Shown: piece by piece, positions 1,304-63,477 of the stretch
How positions within the stretch are numbered: the first letter of the stretch is position 1
Layout of the letters: every line of letters starts with the position of its first letter
Origin: Campylobacterales bacterium
GTDB taxonomy: Bacteria > Campylobacterota > Campylobacteria > Campylobacterales > Sulfurospirillaceae
NCBI GenBank assembly: GCA_016930915.1
Contig: JAFGFU010000037.1
Span: 1 to 64,000 of the forward strand
Direction: 5' to 3'
Length of the DNA stretch: 64,000 nt
Translations under genes and position numbers: made by a program
Notes under the pieces: generated by a model
What the model was told of the DNA's origin: nothing
The model's database searches: none
What the model saw: the letters and a program-made list of their open reading frames with translations, nothing else

Positions 1304-2116
1304 TCATTCTTCTCTTATCCGCATAAAAATAGGAAAACGAGGTTTCCCCTTTTTCGTTAATTCTTTATATTTATAAGTGATTTTTGTTCCAATGGCAGGT
1401 GGATTGTGCCTTTGCTCATCACTAAAACCAGAACCGATTTTAAACATTGCTCCTTCATCGTTTTTACATGTAAGCGCACCTAAAACATTTTTGTATTTTC
1501 CATCACCCTTATGGTGAGAAAGCACAGTACACTCCTCATCGTGAAAGGTTTTCACTTTAAGCGAATACGCATCTCTTCCCTCAGCATACAAGCCATCAGG
1601 ATGGCGAATCACCACGCCCTCACCTCCTGCTTTTTCAACTTCGCTCAAAAAGCGTTTAAGATCATTTGCATCTTTACATATAAACTGTGGAGCAATTTTT
1701 AAATAATCCACAGAATCTGATTTTAAATAATAATCTAACTTTGCTAAGCGTTTCGTTAATCCACCCGCTTCTTTGGGGACATCAAAGGCATAAAAGGCAA
1801 GTTCCCTCCACCCTTCATGCGCCTCTTTTTGCATCACAATGGACTGAATGTGCTCAAAATCACCCCGTTTGCTCCACAACTCTCCATCCACAGCAAAAGA
1901 AGGAAAATCTTTGGTAAACCATGAAGGCGTGGCAAAGAGGGTTCCACCTCTGGAGATGAGCTTTTCACCATCCCAGTAAGCTCTCACCCCATCCATCTTT
2001 TCACTCATCAACCACCCTGAAATAGTTTGGTCTTTGTAGCTCTCAAGCAGTAAAAGGGAAGGCTTATCCGCCCACACCAAACATGAAAATGTCAAGCAAA
2101 GCCAAAAAAATTTCAT
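1304..2116 (-). CDS. ATP-dependent DNA ligase with N-terminal signal peptide (LigE-like)
   Basis: [13 protein letters not shown] nucleotidyltransferase motif I (KxDGxR); signal peptide [16 protein letters not shown] if started at 2116 rather than at the ORF-track start 2143. Confidence 0.85.
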
Positions 2117-3132
2117 TATGCCTCGTATTTGCTCAGATACCACTCAATGGTTTTGACAATACCACTTTCAAAATTCTCCTCAGCAACCCATCCTAACTTT
2201 GTCTCAATTTTGCTTGCATCAATGGCGTAGCGTCTATCGTGCCCAGCTCTATCTTCTACAAAACTGATTTGCTCTTTATAAGACGTTGCTTTGGGTTTTA
2301 AGGTATCTAAGATTTCACAGATTTTATGCGCGATGTAGAGGTTATCTCTTTCATTTCGCCCACCAATATTATAGGTCTCTCCTGAAATGCCTTCATGAAA
2401 AACGAGCTCTATCCCTTTGCAGTGGTCTAATACATAAAGCCAATCACGAATATTTTTACCATCGCCGTAAATGGGGATATTTTGATTGGAAAGTGCTTTT
2501 CGAATGATGGTAGGAATCAGTTTTTCATCGTGTTGTTTAGGCCCGTAATTATTAGAACAATTCGTAATCACCGTGTTCATTCCATAGGTATGATGATACG
2601 CACGTACGAGCATATCAGAACTTGCTTTACTCGCCGAATAGGGAGAATTAGGCGCATACGGTGTAGTTTCGGTAAACAGCCCTGCTGCACCCAATGTTCC
2701 ATAAACCTCATCGGTAGAGATATGATGAAACCTACATGCTTCAAACCCCTCTTTTAAAACAAAAGGTTTTTGCATCCATGCTTTGTACGCCACATCAAGG
2801 AGTGTAAAGGTACCATTAACATTGGTCTCTACAAACACCCCTGGATTTTTAATGGAGTTATCCACGTGCGACTCAGCGGCAAAATGAATCACCCCTTGAA
2901 TGTCGTACTGTGCAAACAAAGACTCTACAAGGTCTCTATCACGAATATCCCCTTGCACAAACGTATGTCTGGGATGGTTTTCCACTTCGCTAAGATTTTC
3001 CATAGTGCCTGCATAGGTTAAAAGGTCTAAATTAATAAGATGATACTCTGGATGCTCCGCCAAAAAGTAGGGAACAAAATTGGAACCAATGAAACCCGCA
3101 CAGCCTGTCACTAAAATCGTTTTTTGACTCAT
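2116..3132 (-). CDS. rfbB: dTDP-glucose 4,6-dehydratase
   Basis: [47 protein letters not shown]. Confidence 0.95.
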
Positions 3133-3992
3133 TTGACCAAATCCTTCAAATACGCACCATACCCATTTTTACTTAGGGGCTTGGCAATCTCTAAGACACA
3201 CTCTTTATCAATCCAACCGTAGTTATAAGCAATCTCTTCCAAACACGCTATCTTATGACTTTGACGCTTTTCAATGGTCTGTACAAATAAACCAGCATCC
3301 ATCAAACTATCGTGTGTTCCCGTGTCAAGCCACGCAAAACCTCGTCCTAGTACCTCTACATGTAAATCACCACGTTTGAGATACGCTTCATTCACACTCG
3401 TAATTTCAAGCTCACCTCGCTCGCTTGGTTTCACACTTTTAGCAATTTTAATCACATCGTTATCGTAAAAATAAAGCCCAGTAACTGCAAAAGGCGATTT
3501 TGGTGTTTTAGGCTTTTCTTCAATGCTGATGGCTTTTTGATTTTCATCAAACTCCACCACACCAAAACGCTGCGGGTCTTTCACTTGATAGCCAAACACC
3601 ACCGCCCCTTTTTCAAGCTTTGCAGAACTTTGTAGCAAAGGGGTAAACCCTTGCCCATAGAAGATATTATCGCCCAAAATAAGACAGACACTATCATTAC
3701 CTATAAATGCTTCACCCAAAAGAAACGCTTGAGCAAGTCCATCGGGGCTGGGTTGAATTTTATAGACAAGCTGTATACCCCACTGACTTCCATCACCCAA
3801 CAACTCTTCAAACTTACCAATATCAGCAGGGGTGGAGATAATTAAAATCTCTCTAATGCCTGCTAACATCAAAACTGAGAGCGGATAATAAATCATCGGC
3901 TTATCATAGATAGGTAAAAGCTGTTTGCTGATAGACTTTGTGACAGGATACAACCTTGTACCACTACCACCTGCTAAAATAATCCCTTTCAT
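3129..3992 (-). CDS. rfbA: glucose-1-phosphate thymidylyltransferase
   Basis: [39 protein letters not shown] signature. Confidence 0.96.
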
Positions 3993-3994
3993 GC

Positions 3995-5365
3995 TTAATG
4001 TAACTCCTTTTTAGCCATAGCGATAATTTCATTGAGTTTGTGCTCATACAGCTTTGCATGACTCTCATCGGTCGATTCAAAACGGGTGACAAGCACAGGT
4101 GTGGTGTTACTCGCTCGCACCAAGCCCCAACCATCGCTAAAAATGACTCTCACACCATCCACATCCACAATTTCTTTGATAGCTGGAAAATCTTTTGGAG
4201 GATTTTTCAAAAGTTCTTTGACTTTATCCACCAAAGGAAATTTATCGTTTTCATTGGTTTCAACTTTTAACTCTTCAGTCGAATACACCACAGGCAGTTT
4301 TGCAATCTCTGCATCCACATCCAAACCATTTTTCACCATTTCTATCATACGAAGGGTGGCGTAAATCGCATCGTCATACCCAAAATATCTATCATTAAAG
4401 AAAAGATGACCGCTCACTTCCGCCGCAAAGTCCGCATTCGTTTTGGCAATCATCACTTTAAGGTTACTGTGCCCTGTTTTATACATAATCGCCTTACCAC
4501 GAGCATTGATGTCATCGTACATAATTTGAGAACATTTCACCTCACCAATGACGGTTGGGTTTTTCATGGCACGGGAGAACAAAATCGCCATAATGTCGCC
4601 TTTGACATTGTTTTTCTTCGTTAAAAAAGCAATTCTATCGGCATCACCATCGTAAGCAAACCCTAGCGCAAATTCACCCTCTAACTCTTTTTTGATGTCT
4701 TTAAGATTTTTCTCCACCGTTGGGTCTGGATGATGATTTGGAAAGGTTCCATCAGGCTCAACAAATAACCCTTTACATGTAAAGTTCAAAGCTTTGAAAA
4801 TATCCTGTACCACCACACCTGCAACGCCGTTTCCACAGTCATACACAAACGGTTTATCAAAACCTTTAAGGTGGTCAAACTCTTTAATCATATAAGCGAT
4901 ATAACGCTCTTTCGCATCAATAAACGAGGAGCTAAAATCATCCTCAATTTCCATGGCGTAATTTTGCATAATCTCACGACCCAATGCGTAAATATCTTCG
5001 CCAAAAAAGGGCTTTTTATCAATGGTAATTTTAAAACCGTTGTACTCGCTAGGATTGTGTGAGCCTGTTATCATAATAGAAGCATTGGGGGTTGTCCCAT
5101 TGAACGTTTGAAAATTGCTAAAGTAATTCACAGGGGTTGCCACAAGTCCCATATTGAGGACTTTACAGCCTGCTTTGTTCAGCCCACTTGTGAGGTATTC
5201 GCACAAAATAGGAGAGTGCGAACGGGCATCATAACCAATAGAAACCACCTTTCCTACCTTTACAATTTGCTTTCCTAAAAAATATCCAATGAGTTTTACC
5301 ATCTGCTCATTGAGCTCTTTTTCGTAAATGCCCCGAATATCATACTCTCTAAAAATTGTTTTCAT
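3995..5365 (-). CDS. phosphomannomutase/phosphoglucomutase
   Basis: [27 protein letters not shown] active-site phosphoserine loop; [14 protein letters not shown]. Confidence 0.93.
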
Positions 5366-6150
5366 TACCCTTCCTTATATAATTCTTCTTCAATCGCAAT
5401 GCCAAACACGTCTGTGTAGGATTTGTCATGCTTCAAATTTTCCTGCATTGTAGCCAAAGCTCGCTGATAATCCTCTATAATAAGGTTGCCTTTAAGCAGT
5501 TCGTATTTCAAAAAAAGCCAGTAGGTATTGAGCACATCGCTCTCGCAATACTCCTTGATTTTCTCAATCTCACCCGCATAAAAAAGCTCCATCACCTGAT
5601 CACCATGCACATCATATTTTCCAGGAAGTCCCACCATCGCACAGACATGGTCTAACTTTAAGCCACGCACCGCTCCAAATTCACACAGATGGTCCATCAC
5701 ATCCACATGAAAACGGTCTGAATAGCGTGAGCGGTAATTTTCCCATTTATTTTTACTGAGCTCCTTGTTTTCCACCTCAAAATAAGCGTTACATGTAAGG
5801 TTATACTGCATGGCTCGAAGCATGAGAAGAGGCATATCAAAACTGCGTCCGTTAAAGCTCACCAGCTTGGGATTGTGTTTGTTAATAAAGCCCAAAAAGT
5901 TTTTCACCATCTCAAATTCATTTTTCCCCTCAATGCTGCTCACTTTACGAAAAATACCAAAATCATCGGCAATCACAGCAGAAATAGCAACAATTTTATG
6001 AAAGGGCAAGCTTAAAAAACCACTACCACTTTTTTCTTCTTGTGCTTTAATGGCTAAGAGTGAAACCGTATAATCATCACCCTCAAACCCTAAAATCTTG
6101 CGAATCAACTCGCAATCGGGAATGGTTTCAATATCAAATACACAAATCAT
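5365..6150 (-). CDS. predicted 3'-5' exonuclease, PolB-like/DEDD family
   Basis: MICVFDIETIPD (DxE) and KLVSFNGRSFDMPLL motifs; likely start 6150 rather than 6189. Confidence 0.8.
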   Translation of the reverse strand: MICVFDIETIPDCELIRKILGFEGDDYTVSLLAIKAQEEKSGSGFLSLPFHKIVAISAVIADDFGIFRKVSSIEGKNEFEMVKNFLGFINKHNPKLVSFNGRSFDMPLLMLRAMQYNLTCNAYFEVENKELSKNKWENYRSRYSDRFHVDVMDHLCEFGAVRGLKLDHVCAMVGLPGKYDVHGDQVMELFYAGEIEKIKEYCESDVLNTYWLFLKYELLKGNLIIEDYQRALATMQENLKHDKSYTDVFGIAIEEELYKEG

Positions 6151-6220: not shown

Positions 6221-6979
6221 ATGCACACCCATGCGTATACCCTTTCGCCAAACTTTCAAAAACGTGATGCTTTTTTGCAAAACATCAAAACCTATTTTAA
6301 CGCTAGCACAGAGAGTATACATCGTGCTAGAAATGAATTAAAGGTTTTACATGTAAACGAAATCGAAGAAGCGTTAGTAGTCAAATCCTTTAAAATTCCC
6401 CGTGGCATTCAAAAATATTTTTACAGTTTTCTACGCCCTAGCAAAGCCAAAACCTCTTACACCAATGCCTGCATTCTTCAAGAGCGTGGCATTGAAACAC
6501 CAAAACCTGTGGGGTACATTGAGTTTTTTGAACAGGGCATTTTAAAAGAGAGCTTTTATGTAAGCGTGGAATGGAAGTATGATTTTACGATTCGAGAGCC
6601 TCTTTTAAACAAAACCTTTTCCAATCGAGAAGCCATTTTTAAAGCCTTTGCCCAGTTTGTCTATGCCTTGCATGAGGCACACATCACCCATAAAGACCTC
6701 TCTCCTGGCAATATTTTGATTCAACAAGAGGGATTGAAGTGCTGTGTGGTGGACATTAACCGTATGGGATTTAAACCTTTAAGCTTCAAACAAAGAGCAC
6801 ACAATTTTGCAAAACTTTGGGCAAGCGATGAGGATTTAACGCTCATACTTAGCCACTATGCCACGCTTGCCAACCTTGATGTAACCACCTTTGTGAAAGA
6901 AGGACTCAAAGCCTCCCATGCGCACAAAGCCAAAATCAACTTCAAAAAACGTCTGCGAGGGGTGAATGTTGTTGATTAA
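6221..6979 (+). CDS. lipopolysaccharide (Kdo/heptose) kinase-like protein
   Basis: HKDLSPGNILIQ and VVDINRM kinase catalytic-loop and DxN-like motifs; LPS context. Confidence 0.75.
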   Translation: MHTHAYTLSPNFQKRDAFLQNIKTYFNASTESIHRARNELKVLHVNEIEEALVVKSFKIPRGIQKYFYSFLRPSKAKTSYTNACILQERGIETPKPVGYIEFFEQGILKESFYVSVEWKYDFTIREPLLNKTFSNREAIFKAFAQFVYALHEAHITHKDLSPGNILIQQEGLKCCVVDINRMGFKPLSFKQRAHNFAKLWASDEDLTLILSHYATLANLDVTTFVKEGLKASHAHKAKINFKKRLRGVNVVD

Positions 6980-7691: not shown

Positions 7692-8446
7692 ATGCTATCT
7701 CCATTGTGATGATTGTGAAAAACGGTGCAAAAACCATTGAACGCTCTCTTCAAAGTCTCCACGCTTTCGATGATGTGGTGGTCTACGATAATGGCTCTAG
7801 CGATGAAACAAAAGCTATTGCTAAAACCTTTAGCAATGTGACACTGATTGAAGGAGATTTTATTGGTTTTGGGCCTACGAAAAACAAAGCCGCTTCGTTT
7901 GCTAAACACGAGTGGGTGTTGATTTTGGATGCCGATGAAGTGGTTGATGCTTCTTTAGCACAAGCGCTTTTAAGCACACCTTTGGAAAACAAAACCGTTT
8001 ACTTGCTCAACTTTTTAGCCTTTTACAAAGAGTTCCCCATTTATCATTGCGGTTGGAATAACCAAAAAATCAAACGCCTTTACAATAAAACTATTACCCG
8101 TTTTAACGACAATTATGTGCATGAAAATATCATCGATGAAGGTTTACATGTAAAGAGTTTTGAAGGAGGGAACATTGAGCATTACAGCTACCTTAGTATC
8201 AGCGATTTTATCATTAAAGCCGATCGTTACTCGAGCCTTTTTGCCAATGATTTTGTGGGCAAAAAATCCTCCTCACCCGCTAAAGCTTTTTTCAATGGAC
8301 TCTACTCCTTTTTTAGAAGCTACATCTTAAAACGTGGCTTTTTAGATGGCTATCCAGGGCTCATTATCTCCTTTTCGCACATGGTCACCAACTTTTACAA
8401 ATACATGAAACTCTACGAAGCCAACCGTGAAAAAGAGGCGAAGTGA
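7688..8446 (+). CDS. glycosyltransferase family 2 (LPS core type)
   Basis: MNAISIVMIVKNGAKTIERSLQSL; ILDADEVV; ATG at 7688 overlaps the previous stop codon. Confidence 0.87.
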   Translation: MNAISIVMIVKNGAKTIERSLQSLHAFDDVVVYDNGSSDETKAIAKTFSNVTLIEGDFIGFGPTKNKAASFAKHEWVLILDADEVVDASLAQALLSTPLENKTVYLLNFLAFYKEFPIYHCGWNNQKIKRLYNKTITRFNDNYVHENIIDEGLHVKSFEGGNIEHYSYLSISDFIIKADRYSSLFANDFVGKKSSSPAKAFFNGLYSFFRSYILKRGFLDGYPGLIISFSHMVTNFYKYMKLYEANREKEAK

Positions 8447-9486: not shown

Positions 9487-10396
9487 AACACCTGTATGGC
9501 TTGGTGATGCCATTATGGCAAGTGTTGCGATTAAAAATATTATTGATCATTTTAAGGGAGCCCAGATTATTCTCTTTGGTTCCTTTGCAGCGATGGAAGT
9601 CTACAAAAGCTATGAGGGCGTGAGCAGAGTGATTGTGGATGAGAGTAAAAAGAGTGGTAACCGTTGGGCATGGCTCTACACCATGAGTAAAGAGGTTGGC
9701 AAATGCGATATCGCACTCTCTTTTCGCAGACAATGGAGTACAAAATTTTTACTCTTTTGCCTCAGTGCCACGCAAAAAATGCACTACAAACGACTCTCAA
9801 AAGAGTCTATCCATCAAGTCAAACGCTACAACGATTTTGCTTCGCATGCGTTACATGTAAACTTCCCACTGGGCGATTTGTATTTGCCTTTTCATGCGCA
9901 TCACTATGAAGAACCCACCCTTGGGCTCAATCCTGGAGCGACCTATGGCAGTGCGAAACGCTGGTACCCTGAAGAGTTTGCCAAAGTGGCGATTGCCTTA
10001 CATAAGCGCTATAACATTGTCATCTTTGGAGGAGCGAGCGAGGTTGAAATCGCCCATGAAATTGAAGAGCTTATACGAGCGCATGGCATTGAAAATGTTG
10101 AAAATATCGCAGGAAAAACCTCTATCCAAAGCTTGTGTGAACACATTGGTGGACTTGAGCTCTTCATCACCAACGATAGCGGACCCCTGCACATCGCAGC
10201 CGCCTACAAAGTGAAAACCATTGCCATTTTTGGGCCAACTATCAGTACCGAAACGCACGGATGGAATAACCCGTATGAAAAAATTATCAAACTCAATCTC
10301 CCCTGTCAGCCCTGCATGAAGCGCACCTGTCCTCTAGGACACCATGCGTGCATGAAGGGCATTGACGCCACCATGATACTTAAGGAAATTGAATGA
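9470..10396 (+). CDS. waaF: lipopolysaccharide heptosyltransferase II (GT9)
   Basis: TPVWLGDAIMASVAI; GLNPGATYGSAKRWYPEEFA; TNDSGPLHIAAA; KRTCPLGHHACM. Confidence 0.9.
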   Translation: MKLFIETPVWLGDAIMASVAIKNIIDHFKGAQIILFGSFAAMEVYKSYEGVSRVIVDESKKSGNRWAWLYTMSKEVGKCDIALSFRRQWSTKFLLFCLSATQKMHYKRLSKESIHQVKRYNDFASHALHVNFPLGDLYLPFHAHHYEEPTLGLNPGATYGSAKRWYPEEFAKVAIALHKRYNIVIFGGASEVEIAHEIEELIRAHGIENVENIAGKTSIQSLCEHIGGLELFITNDSGPLHIAAAYKVKTIAIFGPTISTETHGWNNPYEKIIKLNLPCQPCMKRTCPLGHHACMKGIDATMILKEIE

Positions 10397-12853: not shown

Positions 12854-13805
12854 ATTTTTCCTTACTAAAACTATTCATGTGATTTATGAGTGCTGTTAAA
12901 AACTTTACATGTAAAGTCATCGCTTCTTCATATGTTGGTAACAAACATTGTGTGGTAAATATATCTTCAAGGACTCTATGGGTCATTTCACTTTGAAAAT
13001 AAATTATTTTTTCACTGATTGTTTCAACATTCCAATTATTATCTTTTTTGAGAATTCTCATCCAACCATTTGTTTCATCAATAAAAATATTTACACTATC
13101 TGAGGTAATTGAAAATTGAAGCGGAGAAATATGCTCTGGCAACGAACTCATACTAAACGTATGCTCTCCTAGTCTGCCACTGAGTAATCCATTAAATTCT
13201 TGAAATCCACTACGTTTTGTTTCATATAGTTTTGTATCCAACAACTGTGCATCAATACTCGTTACCGTTTTGCCAGTTAAATATTCCATACAATCTAACA
13301 AATGTAAACCATTGCACCCCATTCCCCAATTTCCTCCTGAAATTGAAAAATGCATCATATGTGCATTCGATAATATGTTTTTTAGCTCCTGATAAAAAGG
13401 GAACATTCTACGTGGATGATTGACCCAACATTTTGTGTTTGATTTTTTTAGCAACTCTGTTGTCTTGTTATATTCATCAACATTTTGAAATAAAACTTTC
13501 TCTAAAACAAGATTTGCAACACTTTTGTGCGTTAACAATTCTTCTATGACTTTATACCTTACATCGGAATTGGTTGCTACAATCACTAAATCCAGATGAG
13601 AAGATAGCTGAGAAAGTGTTTCGAAAAACGCTATGTGTGTTACATTTTTATTCTCAGGCATTGCTTCAAATCTTTCTTTGGCAACACCTCTTGAACCTTC
13701 AAAAGGTTCAACAACTTCAATAGAGATTTCCATACTGCTTTTAGCCAATCCCTGCAGATGCCTACTTCCTAACTGACCCGCCCCAATAAGTGCTATTTTT
13801 TTCAT
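12831..13805 (-). CDS. Gfo/Idh/MocA family oxidoreductase
   Basis: KKIALIGAGQLGSRHLQGLAKS; VLEKVLFQ; GGNWGMGCNGLHLLD. Confidence 0.82.
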   Translation of the reverse strand: MKKIALIGAGQLGSRHLQGLAKSSMEISIEVVEPFEGSRGVAKERFEAMPENKNVTHIAFFETLSQLSSHLDLVIVATNSDVRYKVIEELLTHKSVANLVLEKVLFQNVDEYNKTTELLKKSNTKCWVNHPRRMFPFYQELKNILSNAHMMHFSISGGNWGMGCNGLHLLDCMEYLTGKTVTSIDAQLLDTKLYETKRSGFQEFNGLLSGRLGEHTFSMSSLPEHISPLQFSITSDSVNIFIDETNGWMRILKKDNNWNVETISEKIIYFQSEMTHRVLEDIFTTQCLLPTYEEAMTLHVKFLTALINHMNSFSKEKYDFCPIT

Positions 13806-15780: not shown

Positions 15781-16685
15781 CTATTTTGCTCCTGAATCAT
15801 CATTATTGTTTTCATAACGTCTTGCGCTTCTCCATACGTACACGCCATACTCTCGTGTGCCAAAATAGAGTGATGCATCGCTTCAAACATCGCATTGCGC
15901 TCTAAGCTCTCACACGTATAGCGATGTTCTACACCTTCTTTATTTTTCTGAATTAACGTGGTCCGAACCACATCAAGTACATAGGTGTTTTCTAAGGTAT
16001 GAACCATCACCTCTCGACGAGTGAGCTTACTAATATAATCCATACTCACCGTGACAATGACATTTTGTTCTGTCTTTCCAATGAATGTGGTCATGTCATC
16101 GGAGTCTATCTCTAAATTCGAAATTTTAGCTTGATAACTGTGAACTTCTTTGATGCACCCACACAACCACTGAACATAATCAATTTCATGGCTTAAATCC
16201 AGTAAAACACCACCACCTTCTGCTTTTTTAGCACTGTAAGAGGCCCGATAATCTGTCCCTTGTCTCCATGTCGGCAAATATTGCCCACAGTAAACATTCG
16301 CACTTATCACGTGTTCATCTTTTAAAAGGTTTTTGAGCTTTTGCATCAAAGGATGAAATCTCAAAACATAGCCAACATAAACAGTATTGTTCAAGATTTC
16401 TAATGTTTTATGGGTTTCAAACAAAGGTTTCTCACAAAAAATTAATGTTTTAGATACCTTCTCTTCCAAATACCGTAATTGCTCAAAATGTTTATAGGTT
16501 TCACTTGCGATAATAATATAATCATAGCTTTCTAATTCATGGACACTTTGAAGTGTTTTAAAGGTTATTTTCTCTTGTATATCCTGCTGTGTCACAATAT
16601 GAATCTCTTTTACATGTAAAGACGTTAAAAGAACCTCTTCATGCCTCTTTCCAATAGAGCCATACCCGACAATCAGAACTTTCAC
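15777..16685 (-). CDS. Gfo/Idh/MocA family oxidoreductase
   Basis: MKVLIVGYGSIGKRHEEVL; IFCEKPLFE; GGVLLDLSHEIDYVQWL. Confidence 0.85.
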   Translation of the reverse strand: MKVLIVGYGSIGKRHEEVLLTSLHVKEIHIVTQQDIQEKITFKTLQSVHELESYDYIIIASETYKHFEQLRYLEEKVSKTLIFCEKPLFETHKTLEILNNTVYVGYVLRFHPLMQKLKNLLKDEHVISANVYCGQYLPTWRQGTDYRASYSAKKAEGGGVLLDLSHEIDYVQWLCGCIKEVHSYQAKISNLEIDSDDMTTFIGKTEQNVIVTVSMDYISKLTRREVMVHTLENTYVLDVVRTTLIQKNKEGVEHRYTCESLERNAMFEAMHHSILAHESMACTYGEAQDVMKTIMMIQEQNR

Positions 16686-19781: not shown

Positions 19782-20776
19782 AGCAACTCATCTTCCCTAT
19801 AATCTCGTGTTGCAACAGTGCCTATCACTTCATCCCAGCGCATAGGGCTCATTCCCTCCCCTGGTCGTTTGATGCAAAGATTTTCCTCGCAGAATCGTTC
19901 ACCCTTTTGAATCGCTTTACATGTAAGAATGGATTTTCGTGCTATGCCTATGTTTTTAGCTTCACTCTTGCTTGGTTTTTTTATACCATCACCCAAAGCT
20001 TTCTCGACATTGCGCAAAGCTTTGACCATCGCTTTGAGCCCATCGGGCTCTAAGGAAGCTTTGTGATCAGGCCCTGGCATTTCTCTATCCAGCGTAAAAT
20101 GTTTTTCGATGAGCGTTGCGCCCATTGCCACAGCAGCTATGGGTATTTCAATCCCTTGTGTATGATCAGAATAGCCTACATTCACACCAAAAGCATGAGA
20201 CATCGTTTGCATGGCTTTTAAATTCACTTCATCCATAGGACAGGGATACTCTGTGGTTGCATGTAAAATGGTGATGTTTTCTTTAGGTGTTCCTGCACTT
20301 ACCAATACATCCAGCGCATCTTCCACTTCGCCCAAATCTGCCATGCCCGTCGAGAGAATGACCTCTTTTCCAAAACTCCCAATCTGACGCAAATAAGGAA
20401 GGTTAGTGATTTCACCGCTAGGAATTTTAAAAATATTCATACCAAGACCATGAAGTAACGTTATGCTCTCATGATCAAAGGGGGTAGAAAGAAAAAGAAT
20501 CTTTTTGGACTGACAATGTTTGATGAGTTCATGGTGTGCCATTTCATCCAGTTCAAGCTTTTTTATCATGGCATACTGTGATTCATCCACACCTGTCGTC
20601 TCTTTTTGATAGTCCGCTTTTTGTGCTGTTTTCGAGACAAGTTTATCGGCTTTGAATGTTTGGAACTTAACCGCATCCGCACCCGCCTCACTGGCAACAT
20701 CAATCAGTTTTTTTGCGATTTCTAAACTACCGTTGTGATTGACTCCCGCTTCTGCGATAATAAAAACCCTGCTCAT
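19778..20776 (-). CDS. N-acetylneuraminate/legionaminate synthase (NeuB/LegI)
   Basis: FIIAEAGVNHNGSLEIAKKLID; GADAVKFQTFKADKLV; C-terminal SAF-like RPGEGMSPMRWDEVIG. Confidence 0.93.
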   Translation of the reverse strand: MSRVFIIAEAGVNHNGSLEIAKKLIDVASEAGADAVKFQTFKADKLVSKTAQKADYQKETTGVDESQYAMIKKLELDEMAHHELIKHCQSKKILFLSTPFDHESITLLHGLGMNIFKIPSGEITNLPYLRQIGSFGKEVILSTGMADLGEVEDALDVLVSAGTPKENITILHATTEYPCPMDEVNLKAMQTMSHAFGVNVGYSDHTQGIEIPIAAVAMGATLIEKHFTLDREMPGPDHKASLEPDGLKAMVKALRNVEKALGDGIKKPSKSEAKNIGIARKSILTCKAIQKGERFCEENLCIKRPGEGMSPMRWDEVIGTVATRDYREDELL

Positions 20777-21348
20777 TTTGCCACACTCCCTGCTTTTATG
20801 AACCCACTCACTTCACAATACTCTTTACATGTAACATTACTTCCATAGAAACTGCCCTCTTTCACACACGCTCCACCATTCACAATGGCTCCTGTTGAGA
20901 TATGACAATTATCCTCAATGATGGCATCATGCTCAATAAGGGCTTTAGAATTAATAATACAATTTTTTCCAACGTTTGCATTGGCATTCACCAGTGCATG
21001 ATGCATAACGATGGAGCCTTCTCCTACTTTAGCGTGTTTGGAAACATACGCCAAAGGAGAAACAATGCTAGGCAATTCATAGCCTAAAATTTTAAGCTGT
21101 TCAAACAATGCCATACGAATCTTAGGCGTTTTTATCTGCCCAACAGAAATAAATGCTCTATCATACTGCTTACGCAAAACTTCCAAATCTTCATCGCACC
21201 CAATAATTTTATACCCTAAGACCTCTTGACCCACCAACTCTTTTTTATCGATAATACCTGCAATCTCAAATTTATTTTCTTGCTCAATGACATCAATGAC
21301 TGAACGACAATGCCCGCCACCTCCAATAAGCAAAAGTTTTTGTTTCAT
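20773..21348 (-). CDS. NeuD/LegH family sugar acetyltransferase
   Basis: LLLIGGGGHCRSVIDVIE; left-handed beta-helix repeats (GEGSIVMHHALVNANANVGKNCIINSKALIEHDAIIEDNCHIS). Confidence 0.9.
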   Translation of the reverse strand: MKQKLLLIGGGGHCRSVIDVIEQENKFEIAGIIDKKELVGQEVLGYKIIGCDEDLEVLRKQYDRAFISVGQIKTPKIRMALFEQLKILGYELPSIVSPLAYVSKHAKVGEGSIVMHHALVNANANVGKNCIINSKALIEHDAIIEDNCHISTGAIVNGGACVKEGSFYGSNVTCKEYCEVSGFIKAGSVAK

Positions 21349-22484
21349 CCTCGCACCGAACTAGGAATGTTCACAACCCGATCTTCCAAATAAAGCGCAT
21401 TAGAAATATCCGCACATTGACACGTCTTAAACATTTCTAATTTATTCATGAGCGTCCAAATCAGGCGTGTCATAACACCATTGGCATTGGTATACTCCAA
21501 AAACGCATCCCTTTGCGCTTTATCTTCCAAAATAATCGCATTCAACCAATAGTTAGACGATGCCTCTTTAGGTTCTTTAATAAATGTAATTTTTTGTGAA
21601 GCGAAAAATGCTTCATAAATTTTGGCTAACGCCCTTTTATTCTCTAAAAAACCCTTTAATTGTTCAAGTTGCGCAACCAAAAGAGCCGCATTGAGATTAG
21701 GAAGACGATAGTTAAAGCCTATTTCATCATGCACAAATTCCCATTTATGTGGGATTTTAGCGGTTGTGGTGATATGTTTGGCCTTTTTAGCTAGAACCTC
21801 ATCATCGGTCACAATAACACCTCCCCCACCACTGGTGATGATTTTATTGCCATTGAAACTAAATGCGCCTACCTTACCAAAAGTACCTGTGTGTTTTCCT
21901 TGATAATAACTCCCTAAGCTTTCCGCCGCATCTTCGACTAAAGCGATATGCCAAGCCTCACAAATGACTTTTATCTCATCGATGCGACACGGATGTCCGA
22001 AGGTATGCATCGGCACACACGCCCTTATGACTTTACCTGTGGTTTTATTAAAGCATTGATTCTCTTTGATGTAAGCATTCTCTTCCAAAAAAGCACGCAA
22101 AGAATTAGGCGATAAGCCAAGAGTCTCTCTATCAACATCCACAAAAACAGGTTTTGCCCCGCAATAACTAATGGCATTGCACGTTGCAATAAAAGAAATC
22201 GGTTGCGTAAGCACCTCGTCATCTCTTTCTACACCCATTAATACTAAACTTACATGTAAAGCCGCCGTACCATTCACCGTGGCAATAGCGTACCTACTCC
22301 CTACGGTTTGCGCAAACTCTTTTTCAAAACGATCCACATACGCACCAACACTCGAAACAAAGGTAGAATCAATGCAATCCATCAGGTATTTTTTCTCATT
22401 GCCAACAAATAAAGGTGCATGCAAAGGGATAAACTCGTTCGTTGCAAATGTTTTTTGAATAAATCTAACGATATTTTTATACAT
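21345..22484 (-). CDS. LegC-family aminotransferase (DegT/DnrJ/EryC1)
   Basis: PLHAPLFVGNEKKYLMDCIDSTFVSSVGAYVDRFE; VNGTAALHVSLVLMG; FSFNGNKIITSGGGG. Confidence 0.9.
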   Translation of the reverse strand: MYKNIVRFIQKTFATNEFIPLHAPLFVGNEKKYLMDCIDSTFVSSVGAYVDRFEKEFAQTVGSRYAIATVNGTAALHVSLVLMGVERDDEVLTQPISFIATCNAISYCGAKPVFVDVDRETLGLSPNSLRAFLEENAYIKENQCFNKTTGKVIRACVPMHTFGHPCRIDEIKVICEAWHIALVEDAAESLGSYYQGKHTGTFGKVGAFSFNGNKIITSGGGGVIVTDDEVLAKKAKHITTTAKIPHKWEFVHDEIGFNYRLPNLNAALLVAQLEQLKGFLENKRALAKIYEAFFASQKITFIKEPKEASSNYWLNAIILEDKAQRDAFLEYTNANGVMTRLIWTLMNKLEMFKTCQCADISNALYLEDRVVNIPSSVRG

Positions 22485-39619: not shown

Positions 39620-39765
39620 AATAACCTCCACACACATCGCATAAAGCCTAAAAAATATCTCCATTACCTCTTTACATGTAAAGATAAAATATCACCCTTC
39701 TTCTGCTTTTTACACAAGTTTGTGCTACAATTTAAATGCTTCGGATATAAAGGAGGAAAGTGGCT

Positions 39766-43102: not shown

Positions 43103-43767
43103 ATCACTCCTGCAAAACGCCCTGTAATTTTCTCTCTTCGATACGAAAAATAGCTTTCATGACAGCATGTACACAAAGAAGAAACATTCAGATGTTCAGG
43201 TAAAACACCCTGCTCTAAAAAGGCTTTGTAATTATACGTTTGAAGGTTCAAAAAGAGGCGTTCATTCTTTACATGTAAAAAGCCCTCAAAGCCTTCACTC
43301 ACCTCTTGCCCTACTTCGTAACAACACGCCCCAATACTAGGTCCCATAAAAATCTGCACAGAAGAAGCACGTGTTCCAAACGCTTCTTCCATCGCGTCCA
43401 AGCACTTCACGCCAATACCCAGTCTGCTTCCTTCTCGCCCCGCATGTGCTACACCTATGGCTTCATGCACCGCATCGTAAAACAAAATGGGAACACAATC
43501 AGCGACCATGACCGCGAGCGCTATTCCTTTTTGGTTCGTGATCATCGCATCACATGTAGGCGTTTGTTCCGATTCTTCAATATGCACAATCCTATCGCCA
43601 TGCACCTGCTCCATAAACACAACCACACGCACACCCATTTGCTTGCGTAAAATTTCTCGATTGGCTTTTACATGTAAAGAATTGTCGGTGACATGGAACG
43701 CTAAATTAAGGCTCGAAAATGCCCCTTCACTCACACCCCCAAAACGATTGGTAAAAAGATAGCGCAT
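43093..43767 (-). CDS. pgeF: peptidoglycan editing factor PgeF / multicopper polyphenol oxidase family
   Basis: MRYLFTNRFGGVSEGAFSSLNLAFHVTD; EQVHGDRIVHIEES; VADCVPILFYD; GVAHAGREGS; start taken at 43767. Confidence 0.9.
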   Translation of the reverse strand: MRYLFTNRFGGVSEGAFSSLNLAFHVTDNSLHVKANREILRKQMGVRVVVFMEQVHGDRIVHIEESEQTPTCDAMITNQKGIALAVMVADCVPILFYDAVHEAIGVAHAGREGSRLGIGVKCLDAMEEAFGTRASSVQIFMGPSIGACCYEVGQEVSEGFEGFLHVKNERLFLNLQTYNYKAFLEQGVLPEHLNVSSLCTCCHESYFSYRREKITGRFAGVICL

Positions 43768-48828: not shown

Positions 48829-48998
48829 CGTGCTATCCTTTCTCAAATGTTTAGACATTTTAATAAAGAATCTTACCACAAAACAAAACGCTCTCTAGGC
48901 TTAATTCTTCATCATTACTCTTTACATGTAAAGATTTAAAAACGTTATTCATAGTATAATGAGTTAAATTTATGAAGACAATGAAGGTAGCAATAATT

Positions 48999-53614: not shown

Positions 53615-53631
53615 GAACTTCTTTACATGTA

Positions 53632-53668
53632 AAGCCATTTTACCTCTATTATGGAAGTAAAATGGCTT
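53632..53668. terminator. bidirectional terminator between convergent petC and accA
   Basis: AAGCCATTTTAC ... GTAAAATGGCTT perfect 12-bp stem. Confidence 0.8.
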
Positions 53669-53747
53669 CTTTTGCTTATAATTTTTACATGTAAGAATCA
53701 AAAAATAGAAGAGAAAAAAAGAGGAAAGAAACGCTAAAAATCTACTT

Positions 53748-57031: not shown

Positions 57032-57067
57032 TGTTTTCCTTTTTACATGTAATGTATTTTTTCACGC

Positions 57068-57133: not shown

Positions 57134-58620
57134 AATTCGACTAAGGGTTGATCCATCTCTTTAGGAATGGGCAGCCCCATCAATTTAAGCACCGTGGGAG
57201 CAATATGATTAAGCCCACCTTTCTCCACTTTTGTCACACGCTTATCCCAAACAAAACCATACACATCAAATGTGGTATGGTTGGTCAATGTTTTCTCTTC
57301 ACAATCAAACATCTGCTCACAATTTCCATGGTCACTCGTAAGCACAATAGAATAATTCGCCACTTTGGCTTTTTCAAACAGCCGCCCAAGCTCTGCATCC
57401 ACGGCTTCCACCGCTTTAATGCCTGCTTCCAAACTTCCCGTATGCCCAACCATATCGCCATTGGCAAAATTCACGACAATAAAATCATACGCCTCATCCA
57501 TCGCTTTTAAAACCGCATCGCCCACGGCATGGGCACTCATTTCGGGTTGTAAATCATAGGTTTTTACTTTAGGACTGGGTACTAAAAGCCTTGTTTCACC
57601 TACTTTTGGCTCTTCCACACCGCCATTGAAAAAGAAAGTCACGTGTGCGTATTTTTCTGTTTCTGCGGTATGAAACTGAGAAAACCCAGCATCGGCAATC
57701 ACATCGCTTAGCGTATGTTGAGGCGTATCGGCTTCAAACATTATAGGAAAAGGATAGCTACTATCGTACTCTGTCATCGTAATGCACGTAATGCCATTGA
57801 GGGTACGAGCAAATTCGCCAAACTCCTCAAAGCCAATCGCACGAGAGAGTTCCCGCATTCTATCGTTTCTAAAATTGGCAAAAATGACTCCATCATCGCT
57901 TTGCATTCCACTATACGCTTCAAATGCTACAGGCTCAATAAACTCATCGGTGACACCTTTATCATACATGCTTTGCATATACGCTTTTACATGTAACGCT
58001 GTTTTAGGCTCTGCATCGACCATCGCACGGTACCCTTGCTCAACCCTTTCCCAGCGATTATCCCTGTCCATACTAAAAAAACGTCCTGAAAGTGAGGCAA
58101 TCTGAATATTTTCATTGCATACTGTTTGAAGCTCTTCTAAAAATTTCATTCCAGAAATCGGAGAGACATCTCGTCCATCGGTGATAATATGGAAAAAAAC
58201 TTTTTTTCCACTCAGCTCGCTAATGCGTGCTAATGCAATCATATGATCAATATGCGAATGCACACCTCCATCACTGACAAGCCCAACAATATGAATAGAA
58301 CCTTTTACATGTAAAAGCTCTTGAAGCGCTTTATTTTTTGCTAAAGAGCCGTCTTGTGCCGCCAGTGAAATTTTGACCAAATTTTGGTACAAAATACGTC
58401 CACTGCCTATACACATATGTCCTACTTCACTGTTGCCCATCTGTCCATCGGGTAAGCCTACACTCAGCCCTGAGGTTTGAATTAAAGCGTAAGGAACACT
58501 TTGAAACAATCTCTCATACGTTGGTTTCTTTGCCTGTGCAAACGCATTTGCCACCTCACTGGCATTGTGACCAATACCATCGGTAATAATCAGTAAGGTT
58601 TTTTGAATCTCTGGTTTCAA
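57121..58620 (-). CDS. gpmI: 2,3-bisphosphoglycerate-independent phosphoglycerate mutase
   Basis: LLIITDGIGHN; LPDGQMGNSEVGHMCIGSGRI; VLTSDHGNCEQM. Confidence 0.95.
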   Translation of the reverse strand: MKPEIQKTLLIITDGIGHNASEVANAFAQAKKPTYERLFQSVPYALIQTSGLSVGLPDGQMGNSEVGHMCIGSGRILYQNLVKISLAAQDGSLAKNKALQELLHVKGSIHIVGLVSDGGVHSHIDHMIALARISELSGKKVFFHIITDGRDVSPISGMKFLEELQTVCNENIQIASLSGRFFSMDRDNRWERVEQGYRAMVDAEPKTALHVKAYMQSMYDKGVTDEFIEPVAFEAYSGMQSDDGVIFANFRNDRMRELSRAIGFEEFGEFARTLNGITCITMTEYDSSYPFPIMFEADTPQHTLSDVIADAGFSQFHTAETEKYAHVTFFFNGGVEEPKVGETRLLVPSPKVKTYDLQPEMSAHAVGDAVLKAMDEAYDFIVVNFANGDMVGHTGSLEAGIKAVEAVDAELGRLFEKAKVANYSIVLTSDHGNCEQMFDCEEKTLTNHTTFDVYGFVWDKRVTKVEKGGLNHIAPTVLKLMGLPIPKEMDQPLVEFSGS

Positions 58621-59764: not shown

Positions 59765-60954
59765 TAACACTTTTTGGACACGGAAAAACAACCAAAGCAA
59801 TTGCAAAACGCTATGCAGGAAACTGCCAAATTTTTGATGATGCCTTTACATGTAAAGGTGAAGATGAACACGGAAACCTCTTGCTTCCACCCTCTTTTTT
59901 TGAGCCTGAAAAAAGCAGTGTAGAGATTCCAAGTCCAGGATTCCCCGCAGAACACCCTCTCATTCAAAAAGCCCTTCATGTCACCAGTGAATATGACTTT
60001 TTTAAAGAGGCGATGCCTTTTAGCATTTGGATTAGCGGAACCAATGGGAAAACCACCACCACACAAATGTGCCAATTTCTCTTAGAAAAACAAGGCGCAG
60101 TTGCGGGTGGAAATATTGGTACACCCTTAGCAGAATTAGATGAAAAAGCCCCGATTTGGGTTTTAGAGACCAGCTCGTTTACCTTTCACTACACCAAAGT
60201 CACCGCACCTGATATTTATCTGCTTTTACCCATTAAGCCTGACCATCTTACATGGCATGGAAGCATGGAAGCCTACACCGATGCCAAACTTTCTCCTTTG
60301 GCTCGTATGCGTGAGGGAAGTGTGGCAATTTTGCCAAAAGCATACGCCAACGTGAAAACCCTAGCGCATGTTATTACCTATGAAAATGAACATGATTTGT
60401 GTGAAACGATGGGGATTGATATTTCAAAAGTCAATTTCAAAACACCGTTCTTACTTGATGCGGTACTTGCTATGAGTGCTCAAAAAATTCTTTTAGATAC
60501 GATTGATTATGAACGGATTAATACCTTTAAAATCGACCACTATAAAATTGAAGAGTTCCACGATAAACAAGGACGTCTATGGGTCGATGACTCAAAGGGA
60601 ACCAATGTGGATGCAACCATCGAAGCGCTCAAACGCTATCAAAATGAAGAAATTTTACTGGTTTTAGGCGGGGATGATAAAGGGGTCGATTTACAAGAGC
60701 TTTTTGACTTCATGAAACCTTTACATGTAAAGATATTTGCCATTGGCACGAACACCGAGCGCCTTGCCACGTTTGCCCAGAAAGAAGGACTTTGGCTTTC
60801 AAAATGCTTTGTACTTGAAGAGGCAATGAAGCAGATTCACGCACTCCACACAAGCAAAAGTGTTGCCTTGCTCTCTCCAGCAGCAGCGAGCCTAGATCAG
60901 TTCAAATCCTACGCTCACCGAGGCGATTTATTTAAGGCTTTGGCTCTCTCTTGA
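59761..60954 (+). CDS. murD: UDP-N-acetylmuramoylalanine--D-glutamate ligase
   Basis: [63 protein letters not shown] at 59761 overlaps mraY. Confidence 0.95.
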
Positions 60955-61083: not shown

Positions 61084-61197
61084 CCTCTTTTAAAATTCCC
61101 TATTTTAGGTACTTTCAGCGTTTAAGTTTTCTTTAGGTGTCTTTTTTAGTCAAAAATCATCAATAAATAGTTTTTATTCATTATTAGTTTAACTACG

Positions 61198-62556
61198 CTA
61201 ATAACTCCCTTTGCGTCCAAGGACAACAAGAACCGTTTTAATCAATATCTGTACATCAAGCTCTATAGACCAATTTCTCACATACCAAACATCCAGTTGA
61301 ACACGTTCATCGTATTCGATGTCATTGCGACCACTCACTTGCCACAGTCCTGTAATACCAGGGGTAACAGCTGTAAAATACTCAAAGTATTCGCCATACT
61401 TTTCTATTTCTTTTTCCACAATGGGTCTAGGGCCAACTAATGACATTTCTCCTTTTAAAACATTGACCAACTGAGGCAACTCATCTAAAGAAGTTCTACG
61501 TAAAAAGTGACCTATTTTTGTAATGCGTGGGTCATTTTTGAGTTTAAAGTCTCTTTCCCATTCTTCTTTGCTCTCTTCACAGGTTTCCAAAAGCTCTTCA
61601 AGACGCTCATCTGCATCGATAAACATCGTTCTAAATTTATAAACTTTAAATTTTTTTCCACCAAATCCTATGCGATCATGTGAAAATATAGGATGTCCTT
61701 TTGTTGAAACATACACGATACTGTAAAGCCATATTAAAAAAGGAGAAGCCATAAACAATGCCACTAAAGAAACCACGATATCAAATCCTCGCTTGAGATA
61801 TTGGTCTACAGGACTTAAAAGATTATTTTTAATATAAAATGCCATGCCCTTATGATGAATCGAACTAATTAGTTCCCCAGTGATTACAGGAATTTTTGAC
61901 ATTTTTGGTAGCACAATCACTTTACGAACACGACGCTGAATATGATTAACTAAACTATTCAAGTTAAGAAGTGTATTACTCTCTAAATCGATGACTGCCG
62001 AATCATATTGCCTATCCTCAATCGCTCTATCGATTGCACTATTCACCTTCTCAATAGAAAGAAGAGAAACGTTAATGATTTCTTTCACATCATAACCAAA
62101 AGGATTTCCTTGAGCAAACCACGAGTGAATGTTTGCTAAGCCTTTATCATCACAAATAACAAATACTGGTTGCCTAAAAAACTTAAATTTAAAAAAGATT
62201 TTCTTGAGATAATGAGACCATAGCGCATTAAAATTATTCAGCATATAAAATATACATACAATTGCTCTTGAAGTTGTATCATTCAGTTTGGCAATTGCAA
62301 TAATAATTAATATAAGAGCAAAGGCAAAGAAATTTGCTTTTAACGATAGGGTAATTGCATTTACTGTAACCATACGATTTGTCATCAAACGCAAAGAAAA
62401 ATAACCTAACATATAAACAGAAATCATCCAGCTATAATGTAAAAAAGTATTGACCCCTTCTAGGTTAAACAAAAAATCAGCAAACCAAATTGCTAAAAAA
62501 AGATTTATTACTAAAAAAATAAAACTTATAAAGAATTTTAATAAAAAATATCGCAT
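61198..62556 (-). CDS. undecaprenyl-phosphate sugar phosphotransferase (WbaP-type polyprenyl glycosylphosphotransferase)
   Basis: RGFDIVVSLVALFMASPFLIWLYSIVY; FKVYKFRTMFIDADERLEEL; GHFLRRTSLDELPQLVNVLKGEMSLVGPRPIV. Confidence 0.93.
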   Translation of the reverse strand: MRYFLLKFFISFIFLVINLFLAIWFADFLFNLEGVNTFLHYSWMISVYMLGYFSLRLMTNRMVTVNAITLSLKANFFAFALILIIIAIAKLNDTTSRAIVCIFYMLNNFNALWSHYLKKIFFKFKFFRQPVFVICDDKGLANIHSWFAQGNPFGYDVKEIINVSLLSIEKVNSAIDRAIEDRQYDSAVIDLESNTLLNLNSLVNHIQRRVRKVIVLPKMSKIPVITGELISSIHHKGMAFYIKNNLLSPVDQYLKRGFDIVVSLVALFMASPFLIWLYSIVYVSTKGHPIFSHDRIGFGGKKFKVYKFRTMFIDADERLEELLETCEESKEEWERDFKLKNDPRITKIGHFLRRTSLDELPQLVNVLKGEMSLVGPRPIVEKEIEKYGEYFEYFTAVTPGITGLWQVSGRNDIEYDERVQLDVWYVRNWSIELDVQILIKTVLVVLGRKGSY

Positions 62557-62597
62557 ATTTTCTCCAAATATTAGACCAACATATGGGAACCTAAAAG

Positions 62598-63477
62598 CTA
62601 AAAAGCCAACTTAAACGCAATGAATTTTATAAAAGAATACAGACAAGAACGAGGTATGCTCCACGGTGATTCTTTTAAAAGATATTTTAGTTCGCCCAAG
62701 GCTTGATTGATGCCTGTTGATTCGGCTTTATGGTCTTTTTCCACTTCTTTAAGTATCCACTTATTTTCAGTAAAGAACTTTCCAATGGCGCTGTAACGCT
62801 TCCAAATATCTTTACATGTAAAGGTGTGTGAGTGATATACTTTGGCATCTGCTGCATAGGCTACTTTCTTACCATGCATGATAGCCCGTGCTACAAACTC
62901 CATATCTTCATTCGTATGAAGATCTTTCTTAAATCCACTGACCTCTTTAAAATAACTCGCTCTATACATCGCACAGCTGTCAGAACAAAAAAAACGTTTT
63001 AATACCCATTGTAGGCAAATCATCTTTCGATTTAACTTTAGCGATTAGTGGATAGTTTGTCGTACGTGCAAACACTTCTATAGCATCCGCGTCTTTATAG
63101 GGAATCTGCCTCGCATAGGCGACAACGACATCATCATCTGCAAAAGCTTTCAGTAAGTTTTCTACTAAAAATTCATCGTAAGGCATTGCATCTTGCGTCA
63201 TAAAAAGATAAAAATCCGCTTCATAATTGAGCGCAAGATTGCGTGTATTAGCATGATTGAATTCGCTTTTTTGGATTTTAAGTGTTGCGCGCTTTGCAAT
63301 TGTTAGATCTTTATCGCCTGAGTTGATGACCAAAAGAGCAGACGACACCGTCTGTTTTTGGAGCAACGGCACAATCCGCTCACTAAAGGATACTTGTGGG
63401 TTAAAGATGGGAATAATGGTTTGAATTTTCATGCGAACAGTATCAGCCCGAGATTTCTCATCAAGCCATTTTTCCAA
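62598..63477 (-). pseudogene. glycosyltransferase family 2 (rhamnosyltransferase-like), split by frameshift
   Basis: ORFs 62980..63477 and 62598..63023 are one GT2 protein: ...MGIKTF|FCSDSCAMYRASYFKEVSGF..., broken in an A8/T8 run at 62987-62994. Confidence 0.75.

What the first reader, a model, noticed from the sequence alone, without database searches (positions are those of the whole stretch)
1464..62821. Highly iterated palindrome TTTACATGTAAA spread across the whole window
I read 30 exact TTACATGTAA copies in 64 kb; 18 extend to TTTACATGTAAA and many to CTTTACATGTAAAG. At an assumed ~62% AT, chance predicts about 0.2 copies of the 10-mer, so enrichment is roughly 100-fold or more. Copies are dispersed (gaps from ~60 bp to ~4.7 kb), mostly inside unrelated genes (LPS, gpmI, murD, ccoI, pxpB), and not in tandem. 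Density and dispersion resemble the HIP1 palindrome of cyanobacteria or DNA uptake sequences of Pasteurellaceae/Neisseria, but the sequence matches neither. Possible roles: uptake signal, site for a nucleoid or chromosome-organising protein, methylation/repair target, or a self-propagating correction bias. I do not know of a described function for this motif in this lineage and cannot check.
Basis: partly seen in the sequence, partly recalled or inferred. Interest (0 to 1): 0.9.

Follow-up and report, generated by a model that had tools for sequence, protein, structure and literature searches.

The report
Genome-wide palindromic DNA signature, Sulfurospirillum
Sulfurospirillum bacteria and their relatives carry about one copy of the same short mirror-image DNA word every 2,000 letters all over their chromosomes, kept nearly letter-perfect by selection or a copying bias and spelled in slightly different family 'dialects', most likely as a self-recognition mark for taking up DNA from kin, and no earlier description of it was found.

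Summary
TTACATGTAA occurs 30 times in the window (shuffle expectation 0.14) and 1127 times in the 2.23 Mb genome (reversed control 6). The genome is a Sulfurospirillum. In 399 Campylobacterales genomes the core TACATGTA is enriched in nearly all of the window's family, patchily in one other family, and nowhere else. Outer bases form lineage 'dialects' (CTT|core|AAG, CTC|core|GAG). Sites are evenly spread, 6.6-fold denser between genes, need both half-sites, and are conserved 70-78% between clades where other 10-mers are conserved 12%. Where Leu-His-Val is conserved the DNA is identical in 95% of comparisons (codon usage predicts 3%). In G078, nested among high-count genomes, the sites have decayed. 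So a sequence-specific, probably dimeric reader maintains them. Inside the genus, loss of an orphan M.HpyI/NlaIII-type (CATG) adenine methyltransferase tracks site loss in three lineages, but other genomes keep the sites without it. MutL is absent, which excludes the published HIP mismatch-repair model. Best explanation: a DNA-uptake signature, perhaps methyl-marked, analogous to Neisseria DUS and C. jejuni CtsM (confidence 0.4). Rivals: chromosome-organising protein site; HIP-type methylation drive. No description of the motif was found in the literature searched.

The parts
1464..1473 (.). TTACATGTAA copy, in CDS 1304-2143 (-), frame 1
4773..4782 (.). TTACATGTAA copy (CTTTACATGTAAAG), in CDS
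5789..5798 (.). TTACATGTAA copy, in CDS
6347..6356 (.). TTACATGTAA copy, in CDS, frame 0 (LHV)
8144..8153 (.). TTACATGTAA copy, in CDS, frame 0
9851..9860 (.). TTACATGTAA copy, in CDS, frame 0
12905..12914 (.). TTACATGTAA copy, in CDS of the polysaccharide cluster, frame 0
16610..16619 (.). TTACATGTAA copy, in CDS, frame 0
19917..19926 (.). TTACATGTAA copy, in NeuB-family CDS, frame 1
20825..20834 (.). TTACATGTAA copy, in CDS, frame 1
22250..22259 (.). TTACATGTAA copy, in DegT/DnrJ aminotransferase CDS, frame 0
26649..26658 (.). TTACATGTAA copy, in CDS, frame 0
29494..29503 (.). TTACATGTAA copy, in glycosyltransferase CDS, frame 0
31932..31941 (.). TTACATGTAA copy, in PfkB/cytidylyltransferase CDS, frame 1
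32518..32527 (.). TTACATGTAA copy, in CDS, frame 1
33712..33721 (.). TTACATGTAA copy, in HAD-family CDS, frame 0
36307..36316 (.). TTACATGTAA copy, in P-type ATPase CDS, frame 0
39672..39681 (.). TTACATGTAA copy (CTTTACATGTAAAG), intergenic
43269..43278 (.). TTACATGTAA copy, in CDS, frame 0
43668..43677 (.). TTACATGTAA copy, in CDS, frame 0; perfect in L003 and L005, changed in L006
47734..47743 (.). TTACATGTAA copy, in CDS, frame 0
48922..48931 (.). TTACATGTAA copy, intergenic, divergent
53623..53632 (.). TTACATGTAA copy, intergenic, convergent
53685..53694 (.). TTACATGTAA copy, intergenic, convergent (62 bp from its neighbour)
57043..57052 (.). TTACATGTAA copy, intergenic
57987..57996 (.). 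TTACATGTAA copy, in gpmI, frame 0
58305..58314 (.). TTACATGTAA copy, in gpmI, frame 0; perfect in L003, L004, L007, L010, L012 and L014
59846..59855 (.). TTACATGTAA copy, in murD, frame 1
60721..60730 (.). TTACATGTAA copy, in murD, frame 0
62812..62821 (.). TTACATGTAA copy, in CDS, frame 1

Best explanation
The palindrome is a genome-wide DNA signature read by a sequence-specific, probably dimeric protein that needs both halves of TACATGTA plus lineage-specific flanks. Shown: it is kept by strong purifying selection or fixation bias, is spread evenly, is rarest between divergent genes, has dialects that differ by lineage, and erodes when a lineage loses the (unidentified) driver. Inferred: it works as a DNA-uptake signature. 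DNA carrying it is preferentially taken up during natural transformation and recombined into the chromosome, so the word multiplies and dialects separate lineages, as Neisseria DUS does. In Sulfurospirillum itself the palindrome is probably also methylated at its central CATG on both strands by the orphan M.HpyI-type methyltransferase (locus L111:9431-10402, contig C23), which may serve as the self mark, as CtsM methylation of RAATTY does for uptake in the related C. jejuni. That methyl-mark step is the weakest and cannot be universal.
For: Abundance and family-wide occurrence: about 1000-1700 copies of the 8-mer per genome in most Sulfurospirillum. Dialects with a fixed core and varying flanks match the DUS-dialect pattern (Frye 2013). 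Both half-sites needed: with one TTA half the other is TTA in 81% against 3%; 214 perfect against 74 one-off copies, 43 of these at the outermost bases. Evenly spread (variance/mean 0.43 over 20 stretches, lower-tail p 0.016), no ori-ter trend. 6.6-fold intergenic enrichment; convergent 60, tandem 26, divergent 15.5 per 10 kb, i.e. not a promoter element. DNA-level conservation 70-78% against 12%; Leu-His-Val kept implies TTACATGTA in 266/279 against 2.6% expected. Differences between close species are mostly small, often single substitutions. Erosion: G078 keeps 0 of 97 aligned copies and its one-offs are spread evenly over positions. Plasmids of S. diekertiae carry 14 and 13 cores (0.5 expected), so the bias is not chromosome-specific. 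ComEC present in 77 of 80 genomes. Precedent in the same order: C. jejuni imports only DNA methylated at the palindrome RAATTY by CtsM (PMC10046745). The orphan methyltransferase belongs to the family that sits beside NlaIII/ICEA nucleases.
Against: No uptake or competence experiment on these species was found. Known uptake sequences (DUS, USS) are asymmetric, as far as I know. ComEC is also present in the genomes that lost the word (G078, G116), so loss of ComEC does not explain the erosion. The M.HpyI-type methyltransferase is missing from several rich genomes: G183, G319, G091, G126, G300, G301; the complete genome G126 has no D12, N6_N4 or C5 methyltransferase at all. It is present in poor ones (G037, G289, G343). 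On the tree only 2-3 independent pairs support the link. A polysaccharide cluster in the window has the normal site density, whereas newly acquired regions would be expected to lack an uptake word. The reader protein is unidentified.
Confidence: 0.4

Rival explanations
1. Binding site of a chromosome- or nucleoid-organising protein (a dimeric ParB/Noc-, SlmA- or MatP-like protein or a novel nucleoid protein) that needs about one site per 2 kb everywhere.
For: Even spacing without ori-ter gradient, two-fold symmetry and cooperative half-sites, preference for non-coding DNA away from divergent promoters, strong conservation at orthologous places, and erosion after lineage-specific loss all fit a chromosomal architectural site.
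Against: The core is also heavily over-represented on two plasmids. Near-complete loss in G078 and G116 suggests a dispensable driver. Patchy presence in a second family suggests a transferable trait. No known organiser uses about 1000 such 10-bp sites (own knowledge). ParB-type families were not searched.
Confidence: 0.25
2. HIP-type epiphenomenon of DNA methylation: the orphan CATG methyltransferase (or another) marks the word, and a methylation-dependent repair or editing bias multiplies it, with no other function.
For: The central CATG equals the inferred site of a solitary M.HpyI/NlaIII-family methyltransferase in a conserved chromosomal slot of high-count Sulfurospirillum. The slot is cleanly empty in G078, G116, G241, G331, G150 and G277, which have 42-323 cores per Mb against at least 484 in the 14 genomes that keep it (Mann-Whitney p 0.001 over all scored genomes, ignoring phylogeny). 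One-off copies deviate at the outermost bases, as for HIP1.
Against: MutL is absent from all 20 genomes tested, so Elhai's repair model lacks a component. Rich genomes without the enzyme (G183, G319, G091, G126) and poor genomes with it (G037, G289, G343) exist. CATG itself and other CATG palindromes (GCATGC, CCATGG) are not enriched, so a CATG-only mark cannot specify the 10-bp word.
Confidence: 0.2
3. Operator of a transcription factor or a transcription terminator element.
For: Palindromic, enriched between genes and most in convergent regions; 14 close pairs 15-29 bp apart that could form hairpins.
Against: Density is lowest in divergent (promoter-bearing) regions. More than 1000 copies, evenly spread, on plasmids as well.
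Confidence: 0.04
4. Pure mutational or compositional artefact (strand composition, codon preference for Leu-His-Val).
For: None beyond AT-richness.
Against: Markov and reversed controls; the codons TTA, CAT and GTA together would occur in only 2.6% of Leu-His-Val tripeptides yet are used in 95% of conserved ones; intergenic enrichment.
Confidence: 0.01

Closest known systems
DNA uptake sequences (DUS) of Neisseriaceae and uptake signal sequences of Pasteurellaceae
   Same: Thousand-fold repeated word of roughly 10 bp per genome; lineage dialects around a fixed core (Frye 2013); enriched between genes; few degenerate copies; in coding regions confined to tolerated frames.
   Different: Palindromic rather than asymmetric; unrelated sequence; no ComP-like receptor identified; uptake function untested; different phylum.
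HIP1 (GCGATCGC) and alternate HIPs of cyanobacteria (Elhai 2015, PMC4390886)
   Same: Highly iterated palindrome spread over the genome at about one per 1-2 kb; contains the inferred site of an orphan methyltransferase; one-off copies deviate at the outermost bases; near-loss in some lineages.
   Different: AT-rich word; MutL absent so the proposed repair mechanism cannot apply; methyltransferase presence does not predict the word outside the genus; dialect variation lies in the flanks of a fixed core.
Methylation-dependent uptake of Campylobacter jejuni (CtsM, RA(m6A)TTY; Beauchamp 2017 as cited in PMC10046745)
   Same: Same order; palindromic adenine-methylation site of an orphan methyltransferase as candidate self mark.
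   Different: Different and shorter sequence; I found no report that RAATTY is over-represented; homology of CtsM to this enzyme not tested.
M.HpyI / M.NlaIII family (CATG, D12-class adenine methyltransferases; ICEA/NlaIII partner)
   Same: About 50% identical over full length to family members that sit beside ICEA/NlaIII nuclease genes.
   Different: Solitary in Sulfurospirillum; C-terminal stretch (KADKTENRNHKA in the others) altered, so specificity is inferred only.

Membership tests
HIP (highly iterated palindrome) | Short palindrome grossly over-represented genome-wide | tested here: met
   1127 copies against 6 in reversed control
HIP (highly iterated palindrome) | Genome encodes an orphan methyltransferase for the word or its core | tested here: inconclusive
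   Present in high-count Sulfurospirillum, absent in other rich genomes (G183, G091, G126)
HIP (highly iterated palindrome) | Created by methylation-directed mismatch repair (Elhai model) | tested here: not met
   No MutL over cut-off in 20 genomes
DNA uptake sequence | Abundant, dispersed word with lineage dialects around a fixed core | tested here: met
DNA uptake sequence | Enriched between genes, not a promoter element | tested here: met
   26.6 against 4.05 per 10 kb; lowest in divergent regions
DNA uptake sequence | Asymmetric word | tested here: not met
   Palindrome; both halves required
DNA uptake sequence | Promotes DNA binding, uptake or transformation in its host | not testable with these tools
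   needs an uptake assay
DNA uptake sequence | Host encodes competence machinery | tested here: inconclusive
   ComEC in 77 of 80 genomes; pseudopilus, DprA and receptor genes not tested
M.HpyI/M.NlaIII methyltransferase (for the orphan gene) | D12-class adenine methyltransferase domain and catalytic motif (DPPY) | tested here: met
   PF02086 E 7e-42; DPPYN invariant
M.HpyI/M.NlaIII methyltransferase (for the orphan gene) | Family members paired with ICEA/NlaIII nuclease | tested here: met
   L152 and L104 neighbours hit PF05315; the Sulfurospirillum gene itself is solitary
M.HpyI/M.NlaIII methyltransferase (for the orphan gene) | Methylates CATG | not testable with these tools
   no methylome held; altered C-terminus leaves doubt
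Chromosome-organising site (parS/Noc/matS type) | Restricted or graded distribution along the chromosome | tested here: not met
   uniform, no ori-ter trend; a different organiser type is not excluded

The most novel reading that the evidence does not exclude
A palindromic, methyl-marked DNA-uptake language of a whole bacterial family: Sulfurospirillaceae (and some Sulfurimonas-like relatives) recognise kin DNA through ACATGT-centred palindromes with dialects, read by a dimeric receptor and, in Sulfurospirillum, sealed by an orphan CATG adenine methyltransferase. It would join HIPs, DUS and methylation-dependent uptake into one mechanism.
Probability: 0.2. Interest if true: 0.92.

Novelty: new variant of a known kind. 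Interest (0 to 1): 0.8.

Why it matters
It adds an independent, family-wide case to the few known genome signature words, in a phylum where I found no over-represented one described. It comes with natural losses, dialects and sequenced isolates, so it can test the long-open question of what makes such words multiply (uptake bias, chromosome architecture or methylation bias). The function of HIP1 is still unsettled; here the mismatch-repair model is excluded and a discriminating set of strains exists. If it is an uptake word it would also be a practical handle for genetics in organohalide-respiring Sulfurospirillum.

Tried and rejected
Methyltransferase as sole cause: strong inside the genus but contradicted by G183/G319, G091, G126, G300, G301 (no enzyme, word kept) and G037, G289, G343 (enzyme, no or little word). 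Other methyltransferase classes PF01555 and PF00145: no pattern. ComEC: everywhere, uninformative. MutL: absent, which removes the repair model. Self-targeting of the methyltransferase gene: 4 cores in the plasmid copy looked striking, but the chromosomal slot copies have none, so it was dropped. Viral contigs: two weak hits, one a local repeat in an unrelated 28.5% GC contig. Literature: no paper with TTTACATGTAAA, TTACATGTAA or TACATGTA plus palindrome concerns a bacterial genome-wide repeat. A 2018 NAR paper on HIP1 selection is not held.
Full report
CHECK. The window holds exactly 30 TTACATGTAA, 18 TTTACATGTAAA and 9 CTTTACATGTAAAG. Shuffles give 0.14 copies of the 10-mer, an order-3 Markov model 0.09. 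The genome (2,230,579 bp, 37 contigs) holds 1127 10-mers and 681 12-mers; the reversed words occur 6 and 0 times. Relatives found with the window's mnmG are named Sulfurospirillum, the best at 99-100% protein identity.

ANATOMY. In 443 kb of high-count Sulfurospirillum DNA there are 214 perfect 10-mers and only 74 one-off copies, 43 of them at the first or last base. Given a TTA half-site on one side of CATG, the other side is TTA in 81% of cases, against 3% otherwise. A protein, or an enzyme pair, that reads the whole two-fold word is therefore implied; a CATG reader alone is not enough. The core TACATGTA is seen 396 times where 8.3 are expected, while its one-base neighbours are at 0.5-1.4 times expectation. 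CATG as such and palindromes such as GCATGC or CCATGG are not enriched. Treating perfect and one-off copies as an equilibrium gives a scaled fixation advantage (2Nes or its drive equivalent) of about 4.5-5.5 (inference).

DISTRIBUTION. Twenty evenly spaced 20-kb stretches of the complete genome G204 hold 7-15 copies each (mean 10.9, variance/mean 0.43, lower-tail p 0.016), with no ori-ter trend. In 680 kb, copies are 6.6-fold denser between genes (26.6 against 4.05 per 10 kb): convergent 60, tandem 26, divergent 15.5 per 10 kb (genes called by a simple script of mine). In genes, the two frames without an internal stop are used (157 as Leu-His-Val, 98 as x-Thr-Cys-Lys/Asn, 4 in the stop-bearing frame). 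The ordinary reading is that the word is tolerated where it costs least and avoided at promoters. The window's polysaccharide cluster has about the same density as the rest (10 copies in 22.8 kb). Two S. diekertiae plasmids carry 14 and 13 cores (0.5 expected) but only 4 full 10-mers each.

CONSERVATION AND DECAY. Between the clade of the window and the S. multivorans/diekertiae clade 70-78% of aligned copies are perfect in the other genome, against 12% of other 10-mers. Where Leu-His-Val is conserved, the nine bases are TTACATGTA in 266 of 279 comparisons; codon usage predicts 2.6% (comparisons share ancestry, so this is not 279 independent events). In close species pairs most differences are small, often single substitutions. 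On the mnmG tree the low-count genomes G078 and G116 are nested among high-count ones. G078 keeps none of 97 aligned copies (not independent; the same sites seen from several genomes), and its one-off copies are spread evenly over the ten positions, as expected of neutral decay.

TAXONOMIC RANGE AND DIALECTS. Across 399 Campylobacterales genomes the core TACATGTA is at least four times its reversed control in 42 of 44 genomes of the window's family (exceptions G037 and the eroding G078). It is also high in a patchy set of one other family (f17; e.g. G181 848, G378 675, G126 611, G102 608). No genome of the other families has more than 51 copies. Outer bases differ by lineage: CTT|TACATGTA|AAG in Sulfurospirillum; CTC|TACATGTA|GAG in G301, G223 and G307; C two bases out in G102 and G295; ATT|..|AAT in G378; almost free outer bases in G181, where even the first and last core bases are relaxed. 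This is the geometry of Neisseria DUS dialects, a fixed core with variable flanks (PMC3630211).

THE METHYLTRANSFERASE. High-count Sulfurospirillum genomes carry a D12 adenine methyltransferase of about 325 aa (G000:C23:169433-170401, locus L111:9431-10402, minus strand) in a conserved place beside a transglutaminase-like gene, with no nuclease next to it. Its roughly 50% identical relatives in G112 and G049 sit beside ICEA/NlaIII nucleases (PF05315, E 2e-121 and 3e-79), and phage relatives are annotated 'ulcer associated adenine specific DNA methyltransferase'. CATG specificity is therefore inferred; the altered C-terminus leaves room for another. The slot is cleanly empty, with neighbours conserved, in G078, G116, G241, G331, G150 and G277. 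These have 42-323 cores per Mb, while the 14 genomes scored as having the slot gene have at least 484 (Mann-Whitney p 0.001 over all scored genomes, ignoring phylogeny; only 2-3 independent pairs on the tree, too few for significance). G150 and G277 carry another homologue elsewhere. Against a simple cause: G183 and G319 lack it but have 500 and 542 per Mb. G091, G126, G300 and G301 are rich without it. The complete genome G126 has no D12, N6_N4 or C5 methyltransferase. G037, G289 and G343 have a homologue but few cores. G361 cannot be scored, because its contig ends at the slot. So the enzyme is at most an accessory within one genus.

MECHANISM. The HIP model of Elhai (PMC4390886) needs methylation-directed mismatch repair. 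MutL is missing in all 20 genomes tested, so that model does not apply here. What remains is a sequence-specific reader that gives the word a fixation advantage. I favour uptake because of the DUS-like dialects, intergenic preference, occurrence on plasmids, dispensability (loss in single lineages), patchy presence in a second family, and the precedent that C. jejuni, in the same order, takes up only DNA methylated at a palindrome by an orphan enzyme (PMC10046745). Shown: enrichment, anatomy, distribution, conservation, dialects, decay. A chromosome-organising protein remains a serious rival.

NOVELTY. Text searches of 5.4 million open papers for the 12-mer, 10-mer and 8-mer, and for Sulfurospirillum with uptake sequences, palindromes or methylomes, gave no description. 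Subscription papers and REBASE were not searchable. I call it a new variant of a known kind: a genome signature word between HIP and DUS.

Noticed in passing
window and G000/G204 sample stretches (L111, L230-L234, L243-L262): GATC is strongly avoided (0.32-0.35 of Markov expectation) in G000 and G204, and likewise (0.25-0.41) in G126, G183, G241, G331 and G037, but not in G172, G139, G078 or G150; probably a past or present GATC-cutting restriction system.
   Followed up: no
L305:1692-2732 and L306:6933-7829 (S. diekertiae plasmids pSDCE1, pSDIE1): Both plasmids carry a second M.HpyI-type methyltransferase (about 50% identical to the chromosomal one) with four TACATGTA cores inside the gene; in pSDIE1 the gene looks broken into pieces.
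   Followed up: partly
L194, L226, L235-L237 (genome G078): In the genome that lost the word, CATG itself is lower than in most relatives (0.64 of expectation against about 0.8).
   Followed up: no
L111:9431-10402 and alignment A1: The slot-type Sulfurospirillum methyltransferases lack the C-terminal KADKTENRNHKA stretch conserved in ICEA-linked relatives, which may mean a changed specificity.
   Followed up: partly
e.g. L253:17854, L252:6671, L251:12273: Fourteen pairs of copies only 15-29 bp apart, often with T/A runs; could act as terminators.
   Followed up: no
L303:357-537 (IMG/VR contig IMGVR_UViG_3300012979_000276): A 28.5% GC phage-like contig has five TTACATGTAA copies within about 190 bp, possibly an iteron-like array unrelated to this finding.
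   Followed up: no
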